Below, piece after piece: positions 29,497 to 33,312 of a DNA stretch of 40,130 nt. The notes beneath the pieces are model-generated. The model did not search any database. It saw only the letters and a list, made by a program, of their open reading frames with translations, and was not told the origin of the DNA. The stretch is from Isoptericola sp. BMS4 (GTDB taxonomy: Bacteria > Actinomycetota > Actinomycetes > Actinomycetales > Cellulomonadaceae). Position numbers and translations under genes: made by a program. Position 1 is the first letter of the stretch. Each line of letters begins with the position of its first letter. The stretch is taken from contig NZ_SIRP01000001.1 of the NCBI RefSeq assembly GCF_011634835.1, positions 2,561,125 through 2,601,254 of the forward strand. The letters run 5' to 3'.

Positions 29497-29555
29497 AAAT
29501 CATGTCGCCCTGCCCACACTGGGAGCAAGCACCCCTACTGCGAAGGAGCAGCCCC

Positions 29556-30602
29556 GTGAGCCACGCCAGCGGCGACCTGCGTCCCCGTGTCATCACCCTC
29601 GGCACCGCCGGCGGCCCCCGCTGGTGGCAGCGCGGGGAGCCGACGCGCCGCAGCGGCATCGCGACCGCCGTCGTCGTCGGCGACGCGTTCTACCTGGTCG
29701 ACTGCGGCCACGGCGTCGGACGCCGCATCGCCGAGGCCGGGCTGCACCTGCGCGACCTCCGCGGCGTGTTCGTCACGCACCTGCACTCCGACCACACGGT
29801 GGACCTCGCGAGCCTGGCGGTCTTCGGGCTGTACGAGCTCGGCCACCGCCGCGGCGACCCCGTGCCGGTCGTCGGCCCCGGCGACCGCGGCGCCCTGCCG
29901 CCGGTCTCGCCGCGCGCGACCGTCCCGCCTCGACCCGTCGCGCCGGACCACCCCACGCCCGGTACCGCCGCGATGTTCGACACGCTGGTGCGCGCCTTCG
30001 CGACCGACCTCAACGACCGCGTCATCGACAGCCTGCGTCCCAGCCCCACCGAGCTGTTCGCGCCGCGCGACATCGAGATCCCGGCCGGCCTCGGGTACCA
30101 CCCGAACACCAACCCGACGCCGGCCATGGAGCCGCTCGTCGTGCACCAGGACGACCTCGTCACGGTGACGGCGGTCCTCGTCGAGCACCCGCCCGTCGCG
30201 CCGGCGTTCGGCTTCCGCTTCGACACCCCGGACGGCTCCGTGACGTTCTCCGGCGACACGACCTCCACCCCCAACATGGTGCGGCTCGCCCGGGACACCG
30301 ACCTGCTGCTGCACGAGGCGATCGACGTCGACTTCATCGAGCGCACCTACGGCGGCCTCGAGGACGACGCGTCCCGCGCCTCGCGCGACCATCACTACAA
30401 GTCCCACACCACGGTCGCCGACGCCGCCCGCGTGGCCACCGAGGCCGGGGCGCGCCAGCTCGCCCTCCACCACCTGGTTCCCGGCACCGCCGACGCCTCG
30501 GTGTGGCGGCGCGCCGCCGAGCACTACGACGGCGTCTTCCACCTGCCCGACGACCTCGACGTCATCGCGCTGCGCCCCGCGGCCGACCGCGTCGCCGTCT
30601 GA
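29556..30602 (+). CDS. Metallo-beta-lactamase-fold hydrolase (RNase Z/arylsulfatase-like group)
   Basis: A 348-residue hydrolase with the di-metal motif HxHxDH (VTHLHSDHTVD; His75, His77, Asp79, His80). A later Asp is in TFSGDTTSTPN and a C-terminal His in ALHHLVPG. The fold group includes RNase Z and lactone/sulfate-ester hydrolases; a metabolic substrate is likelier given the neighbours. Start GTG 29556 with GAAGGAG 7 nt upstream. The stop TGA includes the IS110 core dinucleotide GA. Before insertion the next gene started 37 bp further on, so it was the first gene of an operon. Confidence 0.88.
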   Translation: MSHASGDLRPRVITLGTAGGPRWWQRGEPTRRSGIATAVVVGDAFYLVDCGHGVGRRIAEAGLHLRDLRGVFVTHLHSDHTVDLASLAVFGLYELGHRRGDPVPVVGPGDRGALPPVSPRATVPPRPVAPDHPTPGTAAMFDTLVRAFATDLNDRVIDSLRPSPTELFAPRDIEIPAGLGYHPNTNPTPAMEPLVVHQDDLVTVTAVLVEHPPVAPAFGFRFDTPDGSVTFSGDTTSTPNMVRLARDTDLLLHEAIDVDFIERTYGGLEDDASRASRDHHYKSHTTVADAARVATEAGARQLALHHLVPGTADASVWRRAAEHYDGVFHLPDDLDVIALRPAADRVAV

Positions 30603-30616
30603 CAGTGAGGATGTAG

Positions 30617-30800
30617 GCGGGCCCCGCAGCGGTTGGTTCCTGACTCGCCGCCTGACTGACCTCGGGTCTTCAACGGGATCTGTCGGTACTGGCCGCTGCG
30701 GGGCCCGCTTGCACTCACCTGACGTGGCGGTGTGACCTCATAGGAGCCTGTGCCAGCAGGCACCCATCACTGTCTTGTCCGCTCGCCGCGGCGGTGCGTG
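30617..30800 (+). ncRNA. Predicted IS110 bridge RNA (ends approximate)
   Basis: A perfect 16-bp stem (GCGGGCCCCGCAGCGG at 30617-30632 with its complement at 30693-30708) encloses a 60-nt target-binding loop. It contains TCGCCGCCTGA (30645-30655), which matches 10 of 11 nt of the sequence left of the insertion (30592-30602). After the stem, CATAGGAGC (30739-30747) equals the element's right end with core (31928-31936). TCACTGTC (30767-30774) is the exact reverse complement of the left end with core (30601-30608). These are candidate left-target, left-donor and right-donor guides. A right-target guide matching the right flank was not found. Transcript ends are guesses. Confidence 0.75.
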
Positions 30801-30833
30801 CCGCCCTTGCCCCTTGCGAGTGAGAGGACGGCG

Positions 30834-31922
30834 ATGACCACCATCGCACGAGACAGGACCGCTGCCCAGATCGAGATCGCCGGCGGGATCGACACTCATC
30901 AGGACACCCACACTGCGGCGGTGGTCGACAGCACCGGACGGCCCCTGGCCGCTCGACAGTTCCCCGCGAAAGCGACCGGCTACCGGCAGTTGCTGACCTG
31001 GCTGCACGGCTTCGGCATCATCCTGGTGGTAGGGATCGAGGGCACCGGGGCCTACGGCGCCGGTCTGGCCCGTCACCTGGCCAGCGAGGGAATCTCGATG
31101 GTCGAGGTCGACCGCCCCGACCGCAAGGCCCGCCGGTTCGCCGGCAAGTCCGACCCCCTGGATGCCCAGGCCGCAGCCCGTGCCGCGCTGGCCGGAGTAC
31201 GCACCGGGCACCCGAAGACCCGCGACGGGCAGGTCGAGGCGCTACGCAACCTGCGGGTCGCCCGGCGCAGCGCCGTGGACCAGCGCGCGGACTGCCTGCG
31301 CCGGATCAAGACGCTGGTCGTCACCGCACCCGAGACCCTGCGCGAGAAACTGCGCTCACTACCCGACAGCCGGCTGCTGGCAACCTGTGCCGCATTCCGG
31401 CCGGATATCAGCCAGGCCAGCGACCCGACCCAGGCGACCCGGATCGCACTGAGGTCCTTGGCCCGACGCCACGCCGACCTGACCACCGAGATCACCGACC
31501 TGGACGCCCTGATCGAGCCGGTAGTCAAGAAGACCAACCCGCGCCTGCTCGACCTCAACGGCGTCGGACCCGACGTCGCCGGACAGCTACTCGTCACCGC
31601 CGGACAAAACAGCGACCGCCTGCGTTCGGAGGCCGCCTTCGCGATGCTCTGCGGAGTCGCGCCCATCCCGGCATCCTCCGGCAAGACCCACCGCCACCGC
31701 CTCAACCGCGGCGGCGACCGGCAAGCCAACGCCGCAATCTACCGAATCGTGCTGTGCCGGATGCGCTGGGACCCCCGGACCCGCGCCTACGTCAAGCGCC
31801 GCACCAGCGAAGGACTGTCCAAGAAAGACATCATCCGCTGCCTCAAACGCCTCATCGCCCGCGAGATCTACTACGTCCTCCGAACACCCACCCCCACCAC
31901 CGACCCCACCATCGCCGCTTGA
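30834..31922 (+). CDS. IS110-family transposase (bridge recombinase)
   Basis: A 362-residue DEDD recombinase. The RuvC-like N-terminal domain has Asp20 (GIDTHQDTH), Glu69 (GIEGTGAYG) and Asp107/Asp110 (KSDPLDA). A coiled-coil-like middle follows (about 135-235), then a helix-hairpin-helix (LLDLNGVGPDVAGQLLV). The C-terminal Tnp domain has the conserved serine (Ser281/282) in PIPASSGKTHRHRLNRGGDR. All catalytic positions are present and the length is normal. GAGG lies 7 nt before the ATG. It would use the bridge RNA encoded upstream to recombine the element's ends with a target. Confidence 0.95.
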   Translation: MTTIARDRTAAQIEIAGGIDTHQDTHTAAVVDSTGRPLAARQFPAKATGYRQLLTWLHGFGIILVVGIEGTGAYGAGLARHLASEGISMVEVDRPDRKARRFAGKSDPLDAQAAARAALAGVRTGHPKTRDGQVEALRNLRVARRSAVDQRADCLRRIKTLVVTAPETLREKLRSLPDSRLLATCAAFRPDISQASDPTQATRIALRSLARRHADLTTEITDLDALIEPVVKKTNPRLLDLNGVGPDVAGQLLVTAGQNSDRLRSEAAFAMLCGVAPIPASSGKTHRHRLNRGGDRQANAAIYRIVLCRMRWDPRTRAYVKRRTSEGLSKKDIIRCLKRLIAREIYYVLRTPTPTTDPTIAA

Positions 31923-31924
31923 CG
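31919..31924 (+). promoter_or_regulatory. -35-like TTGACG at the IS right end
   Basis: TTGACG overlaps the transposase stop codon. If the element circularises at the GA core, it lies 17 bp from GATGTA (30610-30615) in the left end. This would create a junction promoter for the bridge RNA and transposase. The -10 match is poor. Confidence 0.35.
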
Positions 31925-31971
31925 ATCCATAGGAGCATCACCCCTGCCCGCCGGCGATTCAAGGAGGAATC

Positions 31972-33312
31972 GTGACCCTGCACGACCACGAGGAGGCCGT
32001 CACGGCCGCCGCCCCGCCCGACCGCGGGCTCCAGCCGTCCCTGCACACCACCGAGATGCGCCGGATCCTCGCGTCCGGGTTCATCGGCAGCGCGATCGAG
32101 TTCTACGACTTCATCCTCTACGGGACCGCGGCCTCGATCGTCTTCAACAGGGTCTACTTCACCGACCTCGACCCGGCCGTCGCGATCTTCGCCTCGTTCG
32201 TCACGCTCGCGGTCGGCTACGTCGCCCGCCCGATCGGCGGCGTCGTCTTCGGGCACTTCGGCGACCGCGTCGGACGCAAGAGGATGCTGGTGCTGTCCAT
32301 GCTGCTCATGGGCGTGGCCACGACCCTGATCGGCGTCCTGCCCACGACCGCGCAGATCGGCGTCGCGGCGCCCGTGCTCCTCGTGCTGCTGCGGCTCGTG
32401 CAGGGCATCGCCGTGGGCGGCGAGTGGGGCGGCGCCGCACTCATGGCGCTCGAGCACGCCCCGACCGAGAAGCGCGGCTTCGCGACGTCGTTCGCCTCCG
32501 CGGGCGGGCCCGCCGGCGCCCTCCTGGCCACCCTCGTCGTCACGGTCATGTCCGCGACGACGGGCGAGCAGTTCCTCACCTGGGGCTGGCGCGTGCCCTT
32601 CCTGCTGTCCGCCGCGCTCATCGCCGTCGGGCTCGTCATCCGGCTCAAGGTCACGGAGAGCCCGCTGTTCCAGCAGCTGGAGCAGGCGAGCGAGGAGCGC
32701 AAGGTCCCGATCGTCGAGGTGCTGCGGCACCACCGCCGCGCCGTCGGGCTCGCCCTCGTCGCCGCCCTCGGCTTCCCCGCCTGCCAGGGCCTGCTCACCG
32801 TGTGGGGCGTGTCCATGGCCGTCGAGAACGGCGTCGAGCGCACCGACGTCCTGGTCTGGAAGGCGGCGGGTGCCGCGCTCACCCTGGCCGTGACGTTCGC
32901 GTCGGCGCGCCTCAGCGACCGCTTCGGCCGACGCCGCATGCTCGTCGCGGGCGCCACGCTCGGCGTCGTCTGCGCCTACCCGCTGCTGACGCTGCTGACC
33001 AACGGCACCCTGGGGGGCTTCGCCGTCGCCATCGTCGTCGGCAACGGCCTCGTCCAGGGCATGCTCTTCGGTCCCCTCGGTGCGTTCGTCGCCGAGCAGT
33101 TCCCGACCCGCGTGCGGTACACGGGCGCGTCGCTGGCCTACCAGGGCGGATCCACCCTCGGCGCCGGGTTCTCCCCGATGATCGCCGCCGGCCTGATCGT
33201 CGTCGCCTCGGGCGCGATCTGGCCCGTCGCACTCTTCTGGGCGGCGATCCTGGCGGCCGTCGCCGTCGCCGTCCTGGTGATGCGCGAGAGCAGCCGCTCC
33301 ACCCTGGGCTGA
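31972..33312 (+). CDS. MFS transporter, metabolite:H+ symporter (MHS) family
   Basis: A 446-residue, 12-helix symporter. MHS features are SAIEFYDFILYGTAASIVF in helix 1, GHFGDRVGRKRML between helices 2 and 3, RLVQGIAVGGEWGGAALMALEHAP, and the second-half motif RLSDRFGRRRML. The family imports organic acids such as 2-oxoglutarate, shikimate, citrate or aromatic acids. The start GTG has AAGGAGG at 5 nt. Before the IS110 insertion the gene was 37 bp downstream of the MBL-fold gene, so both were probably expressed from the LysR-controlled promoter. It may now depend on transcription from the IS. Confidence 0.92.
   Translation: MTLHDHEEAVTAAAPPDRGLQPSLHTTEMRRILASGFIGSAIEFYDFILYGTAASIVFNRVYFTDLDPAVAIFASFVTLAVGYVARPIGGVVFGHFGDRVGRKRMLVLSMLLMGVATTLIGVLPTTAQIGVAAPVLLVLLRLVQGIAVGGEWGGAALMALEHAPTEKRGFATSFASAGGPAGALLATLVVTVMSATTGEQFLTWGWRVPFLLSAALIAVGLVIRLKVTESPLFQQLEQASEERKVPIVEVLRHHRRAVGLALVAALGFPACQGLLTVWGVSMAVENGVERTDVLVWKAAGAALTLAVTFASARLSDRFGRRRMLVAGATLGVVCAYPLLTLLTNGTLGGFAVAIVVGNGLVQGMLFGPLGAFVAEQFPTRVRYTGASLAYQGGSTLGAGFSPMIAAGLIVVASGAIWPVALFWAAILAAVAVAVLVMRESSRSTLG

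What the first reader, a model, noticed from the sequence alone, without database searches (positions are those of the whole stretch)
30601..31936. IS110 element with a readable bridge RNA: three of four guides match the element ends and insertion site
Seen: (a) a 16-bp stem (30617-30632/30693-30708) encloses TCGCCGCCTGA, matching 10/11 nt of the left flank 30592-30602. (b) CATAGGAGC at 30739-30747 equals the right end 31928-31936. (c) TCACTGTC at 30767-30774 is the exact reverse complement of the left end 30601-30608. Known: IS110 bridge RNAs carry target- and donor-binding loops with left guides identical, and right guides complementary, to the DNA top strand, sharing a core dinucleotide. 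All three matches align on a GA core. A right-target guide for GAGCATC was not found, so either that side is mismatched or the core assignment is off.
Basis: partly seen in the sequence, partly recalled or inferred. Interest (0 to 1): 0.82.

Follow-up and report, generated by a model that had tools for sequence, protein, structure and literature searches.

The report
RNA-guided jumping gene targeting stop codons
This is a small bacterial jumping gene of the IS110 family whose own guide RNA can be read in the sequence; across its relatives that RNA usually points to the stop codon of a host gene, so the element lands just behind the gene without breaking it.

Summary
In detail: the three matches exist, and none of 1000 shuffles gave all three. 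The element is a single-copy IS110-family insertion with a bridge RNA in its left end. In 48 readable insertions (35 target loops) the left target guide follows the left flank, the right donor guide follows the left end, and the RNA stem shows compensatory changes. Two parts of the reading are wrong. GA is not the core: empty sites and junctions show an overlap of one base, C (30603 and 31939), so the element is about 30603-31938. The 'missing' right target guide exists (30674-30677) and covaries in relatives, but this copy is mismatched there. GA is target positions 6-7, and TC behind the right donor guide behaves like the IS621 'handshake' guide. New: target positions 5-7 are TGA or TAA in 39 of 48 insertions, and these sit at real gene stop codons far more often than guide-like sites nearby (21 of 37 versus 15 of 251; 5 of 7 in later-fetched insertions). 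Here the element follows the stop codon of a metallo-hydrolase gene. A new variant of a known kind.

The parts
30603..31938 (+). IS110-family element, 1336 bp, counting the left copy of the overlap base C (equivalently 30604-31939)
   Evidence: ends from relatives and empty sites
30600..30602 (+). TGA stop codon of the upstream metallo-hydrolase gene (29502-30602) = target positions 5-7
   Evidence: ORF and Pfam; frame test
30595..30602 (+). left target, positions 0-7
   Evidence: pairs with the left target guide; covariation in relatives at positions 0-6
30603..30603 (+). overlap (core) base C, left copy, position 8
31939..31939 (+). overlap (core) base C, right copy
30604..30794 (+). bridge RNA region: target-binding domain, then donor-binding domain
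   Evidence: fold z -5.55, 0 of 200 shuffles as good; 23 of 40 consensus pairs with double-sided changes
30617..30632 (+). 5' arm of the target-loop stem
   Evidence: perfect complement of 30693-30708
30693..30708 (+). 3' arm of the target-loop stem
30646..30656 (+). left target guide CGCCGCCTGAC (positions -2 to 8); 10 of 11 match to this insertion site
30674..30677 (+). right target guide CGGG (pairs positions 11-8); positions 9-10 supported by covariation in relatives, this copy mismatched at 9 and 11
30678..30679 (+). handshake guide AT of the target loop, complementary to donor positions 7-6 (31938-31937)
   Evidence: conserved; one compensatory change (L107 GT/AC), one G-U (L003)
30739..30747 (+). 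left donor guide CATAGGAGC, identical to the right end 31928-31936
30765..30772 (+). right donor guide CATCACTG, pairs with the left end from 30603 (one mismatch at 30609)
   Evidence: covaries in 32 of 32 distinct bridge RNAs with a readable guide; L049
30773..30774 (+). handshake guide TC of the donor loop, complementary to target GA (30601-30602)
   Evidence: covaries with target positions 6-7
30834..31922 (+). DEDD recombinase gene, 362 aa (the ORF could also start upstream, at 30750)
   Evidence: PF01548, PF02371, NF033542; PDB IS621/ISCro4; ORF list
31919..31924 (+). -35-like TTGACG in the right end; with -10-like GAGGAT (30607-30612) it would form a promoter only when the ends are joined in a circle
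   Evidence: TTGAC[AG], spacer 17-18, GA[TG]GAT in 39 of 41 insertions with a readable right end
31940..31943 (+). right target, positions 9-12

Best explanation
It is an IS110-group insertion sequence. Its left end encodes a bridge RNA that should be made from a promoter formed when the ends join in the excised circle. [quoted passage not shown] The donor loop pairs with the element's right end (left donor guide) and left end (right donor guide). The recombinase exchanges strands at position 8, leaving a one-base overlap (C) instead of the IS621 dinucleotide. After exchange the two handshake guides pair with the other DNA's positions 6-7. In this clade the left target guide usually ends in a stop codon plus C (TGA-C, sometimes TAA-C), so the element often lands just behind a host stop codon and leaves the protein intact. 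Shown by sequence: guides, covariation, empty sites, stop-codon enrichment. Inferred: transcription, RNP, circle, strand exchange, and that selection maintains the stop-codon guide.
For: Family. Left target guide vs left flank: 319 matches vs mean 232, maximum 261 in 20,000 swaps, 35 target loops; right target guide positions 9 and 10 match in 0.86 and 0.82 vs 0.49 and 0.40 swapped, 28 loops. Right donor guide vs left end: AGTGA/TCACT 24, AGAGA/TCTCT 8, no conflict; L049 T/A. Donor-loop handshake vs target 6-7: GA/TC 24, AA/TT 5, one AA/TC, one GG/TC. Fold. Empty sites: Amycolatopsis TTGAATGA-C-TCATTCA vs filled TTGAATGA-C-AGAGAGG..GGAGCAT-C-TCATTCA; P. flavus; syntenic spacing of 18 nt in L216 and in the window if one C is kept (counted). 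Left junctions without constraining positions 8-9: CA 49, TA 2, CT 1, of 52 found among 67 loci. Stop codons: 21 of 37 TGAC/TAAC insertions (21 of 46 tested in all) vs 25 of 385 CTGAC sites and 15 of 251, or 3 of 43, guide-like sites at 6 or 7 of 8 in the same loci; later-fetched insertions 5 of 7. Pfam domains in the frame that ends at the target stop: 17 of 30 frames plus the window, including a TAA case (L029).
Against: This copy's right target matches 2 of 4. Only 48 of 67 loci at 57% identity or more (window included) gave a full reading. Some guides do not spell a stop codon at positions 5-7 (CAAC 2, TGGC 2, GGAC 1, AGAC 1 of 35; and two later-fetched elements in 5 insertions). The L233-type element breaks the handshake rule (AT opposite GA). 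L033 has T at guide position 8 but C at the junction. Right-guide match beyond position 10 is at chance. Purging of gene-breaking insertions could create part of the stop-codon excess. Relatedness of elements was not modelled in the swap tests. No transcript or transposition data.
Confidence: 0.87

Rival explanations
1. Ordinary IS110 with a two-base GA core; stop codons play no part.
For: GA occurs at both junctions in the window (30601-30602, 31933-31934) and TC in the right donor guide would match it.
Against: GAGCAT (rarely GAGCGT or GAGGAT) is kept at the right end of independent insertions with different flanks, so that GA lies inside the element. Empty sites give overlap C. In elements with AA at target positions 6-7 the right end still reads GGAG. 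A GA join would give 22 nt, not 18, before the conserved RBS of L216 (counted).
Confidence: 0.04
2. The guides are real, but the stop-codon preference is a by-product: insertions inside genes are purged, and an ancestral TGAC in the guide leaves gene ends as the main survivors.
For: Control sites with the same motif are mostly not gene ends; many target loops share TGAC, probably by descent.
Against: Three guides read TAAC, still a stop codon, with a matching handshake change; L029 sits behind a native TAA of a Pfam-supported gene. Purging alone would allow random intergenic sites.
Confidence: 0.35
3. The core is two bases as in IS621, but differs in one base between target and donor and is always repaired the same way.
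For: Position 8 can be T or C at the junctions (L050, L070, and the internal junction of L027), so some heteroduplex occurs at 8.
Against: Position 9 at the left junction is A in 51 and T in 1 of 52 junctions found, the T being matched by its right donor guide, while at the right junction it varies (C 24, T 7, A 6, G 4) and follows the right target guide; position 7 is T at 41 of 41 right ends and A in 47 of 48 left junctions. Random repair would mix them.
Confidence: 0.12
4. The matches in this one window are chance.
For: Single matches recur in up to 6 of 1000 shuffles.
Against: All three together 0 of 1000; covariation across 35 target loops.
Confidence: 0.01

Closest known systems
IS621 (IS110 group) bridge RNA system (PMC11208160: outline with abstract, passages and section 12 seen; PMC11208158: passages seen)
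   Same: DEDD recombinase with the RNA in the left end, target loop before donor loop, left guides identical and right guides complementary to the top strand, short right target guide, handshake guides, promoter across joined ends
   Different: one-base overlap C instead of core CT; left donor guide pairs with donor positions -3 to 5 rather than up to the core; target sites are mostly TGA/TAA at gene ends, whereas for IS621 REP elements are the annotated targets
ISCro4 (PDB 9t56)
   Same: closest solved recombinase by sequence, E 2.9e-9
   Different: remote; guides not compared
IS1111 group / seekRNA elements (PMC11187229: passages seen)
   Same: RNA-guided DEDD family, target differs per element, no duplication once ends are set correctly
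   Different: RNA lies downstream of the recombinase gene and ends carry subterminal inverted repeats; here the long non-coding end is upstream
IS900 (PMC8141618: passages seen)
   Same: actinobacterial IS110 element with a motif-specific target (CATGN6TCTCCTT) and rare gene disruption (three genes); reading that motif as start codon plus RBS is recalled
   Different: start side, not stop codon; guides not treated in the passages seen

Membership tests
IS110 family | DEDD_Tnp_IS110 and Transposase_20 domains above curated cut-offs | tested here: met
   90.6 vs 29 and 65.3 vs 21.3 bits; NF033542 187.7 vs 140
IS110 family | catalytic DEDD plus serine residues | tested here: inconclusive
   only a partial alignment to ISCro4 was seen; residues not mapped one by one
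IS110 group (not IS1111) | long non-coding left end carrying the RNA, short right end | tested here: met
   230 nt upstream of the ATG at 30834 vs 16-17 nt after the stop codon
IS110 group bridge RNA | two loops whose guides covary with target and donor | tested here: met
   target guides and right donor guide; left donor guide identical in 20 of 27 comparisons with one shared change; fold
IS621-type | identical core dinucleotide in target and donor | tested here: not met
   one-base overlap
IS621-type | promoter-like boxes across joined ends | tested here: met
   sequence only, 39 of 41 insertions with a readable right end
IS621-type | expressed RNA bound by the recombinase, circular intermediate | not testable with these tools
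   needs RNA and mobility data
IS1111 group | RNA in a long right end | tested here: not met
   right non-coding end is 16-17 nt
IS1111 group | long subterminal inverted repeats | not tested
   no search was made for them

The most novel reading that the evidence does not exclude
A clade of actinobacterial IS110 elements has a guide RNA kept by selection as a stop-codon reader (TGA-C, switching to TAA-C with a coupled handshake change). It inserts harmlessly behind genes and recombines over a one-base overlap; it is also preyed on by other IS110 elements whose guides point at its donor-binding loop.
Probability: 0.5. Interest if true: 0.75.

Novelty: new variant of a known kind. Interest (0 to 1): 0.6.

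Why it matters
It would show how an RNA-guided transposon can become nearly harmless by programming its guide to a universal gene-end signal. It gives natural evidence for handshake pairing in another IS110 clade. A one-base overlap would relax the core rule that limits bridge-recombinase design. Each point can be tested with two plasmids in a laboratory strain.

Tried and rejected
GA core: rejected (empty sites, right-end conservation). CA core with a two-base bulge in the right target guide: rejected, because right-flank position 9 varies and follows the guide. Rfam: no match at E up to 1 in 30000-32700. Own-genome copies: only this one at E up to 0.001. Direct empty site of this insertion: none of the other 17 genomes searched in the genus has a close ortholog of the upstream gene (best E 8.5e-7); in 396 genomes of the order 16 have one at E up to 1e-70, 11 loci were fetched besides the window's own, and the nearest (L216) was compared.

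Limits of the counts. The 67 loci and 48 insertions include the window; 19 of 67 loci had no readable left end. Less similar loci were printed but not counted. The strict stop-codon test misses genes with Pfam domains: L029 and L031 fail on third-position GC, L028 because the mirror frame is longer; so 21 of 37 is probably low. The first count of left position 9 (48 of 48) was fixed by the search pattern; one search repeats it unconstrained. Of 39 frames that end at a target stop, 30 were sent to Pfam and the window's; eight were not (L069, L045, L021, L019, L036, L033, L044 with 20 codons or fewer, and L043). One of 32 listed sequences (L011) was left out of the RNA alignment. Later-fetched loci: 34 examined, 17 readable, 5 of these already known, 12 new; 7 of the 12 have TGAC and 5 have guides without a stop codon.

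Literature: in the listings no title or start of abstract pointed to stop-codon targeting by IS110. Parts of six papers were seen. Most subscription papers and preprints are not held, so this is weak evidence of absence.

Full report
What is there. Positions 30834-31922 encode a 362-aa recombinase with DEDD_Tnp_IS110 and Transposase_20 domains, and NCBIfam names it 'IS110 family RNA-guided transposase'. The closest solved chains are ISCro4 and IS621. The element is single-copy in its genome. No Rfam family matches. The non-coding end of about 230 nt is upstream of the gene, as in the IS110 group.

The three matches. They are at the stated coordinates. In 1000 shuffles of the left end matches as good recurred 6, 0 and 5 times singly, and never all together.

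Relatives. A scan of genome contigs found 107 relatives, of which the best 80 were kept; two more used here came from genomes of the order (L107, L108). The left end is conserved at DNA level from its first bases in many of them. Of 67 loci at 57% protein identity or more (window included), 48 gave a full reading, with 35 distinct target loops. The left target guide follows the left flank: 319 matches against a mean of 232 when guides and flanks are swapped, never above 261 in 20,000 swaps, with single columns significant over positions 0-6. Positions 9 and 10 match in 0.86 and 0.82 of cases against 0.49 and 0.40 when swapped (28 loops); from position 11 on the match is at chance. The window's own right flank (CACC against guide-predicted CCCG) matches 2 of 4. 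The right donor guide follows the left end without exception: AGTGA/TCACT 24, AGAGA/TCTCT 8; in L049 T9 is met by A. The left donor guide equals the right end over nine bases in 20 of 27 comparisons, including one shared change (L007).

Boundaries and core. The right end reads ATAGGAGCAT, with rare variants, in independent insertions with different flanks, so the GA at 31933-31934 is inside the element. In Amycolatopsis the target is a repeat, TTGAATGA-N-TCATTCA; filled copies L025 and L026 read TTGAATGA-C-AGAGAGG and GGAGCAT-C-TCATTCA. Left and right flanks overlap on one base. In P. flavus the target is a repeat: 254 matches to CSGCGGAN{1,20}TCGCGGTAGC, nearly all of those listed reading C[AG] between the two parts. 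L008, L013 and L080 fit the same junction, though there a CA overlap cannot be told from C; L055 has three extra bases. For the window, 18 nt separate TGA from ATTCAAGGAGG in the syntenic locus L216, and 18 nt remain in the window if one C is kept (counted by hand). Without constraining positions 8-9, left junctions read CA in 49, TA in 2 and CT in 1 of 52 found (67 searched). The two TA cases, L050 and an internal junction of L027, belong to elements whose guide has T at position 8; L033 has the same guide but C. L070 has T at position 8 on the right. Position 8 can therefore come from either partner, while 7 and 9 do not mix: the overlap is one base.

Handshake. In IS621 two bases behind each right guide pair with the other DNA after strand exchange (PMC11208158, passages). 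Here the donor-loop bases are TC when the target has GA at 6-7 (24 bridge RNAs), TT when it has AA (5), with one AA/TC (L107, whose flank has an extra A) and one GG/TC (L035, G-U possible). The target-loop bases are AT opposite donor AT (26), with GT/AC (L107) and GT/AT (L003). The L233-type element does not follow the rule.

RNA fold and promoter. The window RNA folds with z -5.55, 0 of 200 shuffles as good. The consensus of 31 sequences has 40 pairs, 23 with double-sided changes, mostly in the target-loop stem. Joining right and left ends gives a TTGAC[AG] box, a 17-18 nt spacer and GA[TG]GAT in 39 of 41 insertions.

Stop codons. Target positions 5-7 read TGA or TAA in 39 of 48 insertions; among the 35 guides positions 5-8 are TGAC 25, TAAC 3, CAAC 2, TGGC 2, GGAC 1, AGAC 1, TGAT 1. 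A test for a real gene end (open frame of 80 or more codons, highest third-position GC of at least 0.8, longer than the mirror frame) passes for 21 of 46 testable insertions, 21 of 37 with TGAC/TAAC. Control sites in the same loci pass in 49 of 1295 (TGAC), 25 of 385 (CTGAC) and 9 of 117 (TAAC), and in 15 of 251 and 3 of 43 for sites matching the element's own guide at 6 or 7 of 8 (Fisher p about 7e-13 and 1e-6). Of 12 new readable insertions fetched after the idea was formed, 7 have TGAC and 5 of these pass; the other 5 have non-stop guides. Pfam finds domains in the frame that ends at the target stop in 17 of 30 tested frames (L031's is a transposase), plus the window's own metallo-hydrolase. 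L029, with a TAA guide, sits behind the native TAA of a VCA0040-like gene.

How it most likely works. The circle's joined ends drive the bridge RNA; the recombinase uses it to bring the circle junction and the target together and exchanges strands at the shared C. The gene upstream keeps its stop codon. The steps after guide recognition are inferred from IS621.

Membership and novelty. It is an IS110-group member by recombinase, layout and RNA. It fails the IS621 dinucleotide-core feature. The term 'stop codon' has no hit in the main text of PMC11187229 and PMC11208160, and the listings named in Tried and rejected showed no report. I rate it a new variant of a known kind.

Noticed in passing
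L006, L012, L034, L067 (bridge RNA gene): A different IS110-family element, in opposite orientation, sits exactly in the left donor guide of this element type in four loci (L012 and L067 are from one strain). Its left junction reads GGCTC-CT-GACTT in four, its right one CT-AT[GT]AGG in the three where it is held: overlap CT. In L034 its own left end holds GCAGGCTCCT and CTCATAG, which look like guides for that site. One IS110 may prey on another's bridge RNA gene.
   Followed up: partly
L027, about 2226-2300: A second left end starts exactly at the element's own left target guide (GTCACGTGAT), as if the element had inserted into its own guide sequence.
   Followed up: partly
L116, L119, L121, L124, L126, L129, L130 right flanks: More distant relatives share right flanks beginning AACGC, several going on ..GCCGAGG or similar, which resemble an IS3-type transposase gene motif (motif recalled, not searched).
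   Followed up: no
window 29502-33309: The metallo-hydrolase and MFS transporter genes flanking the element are neighbours in 11 of 11 relatives fetched from the order; the element separates them.
   Followed up: partly
L008 and L025 genomes: Some members target palindrome-like repeats present in many copies instead of stop codons.
   Followed up: partly
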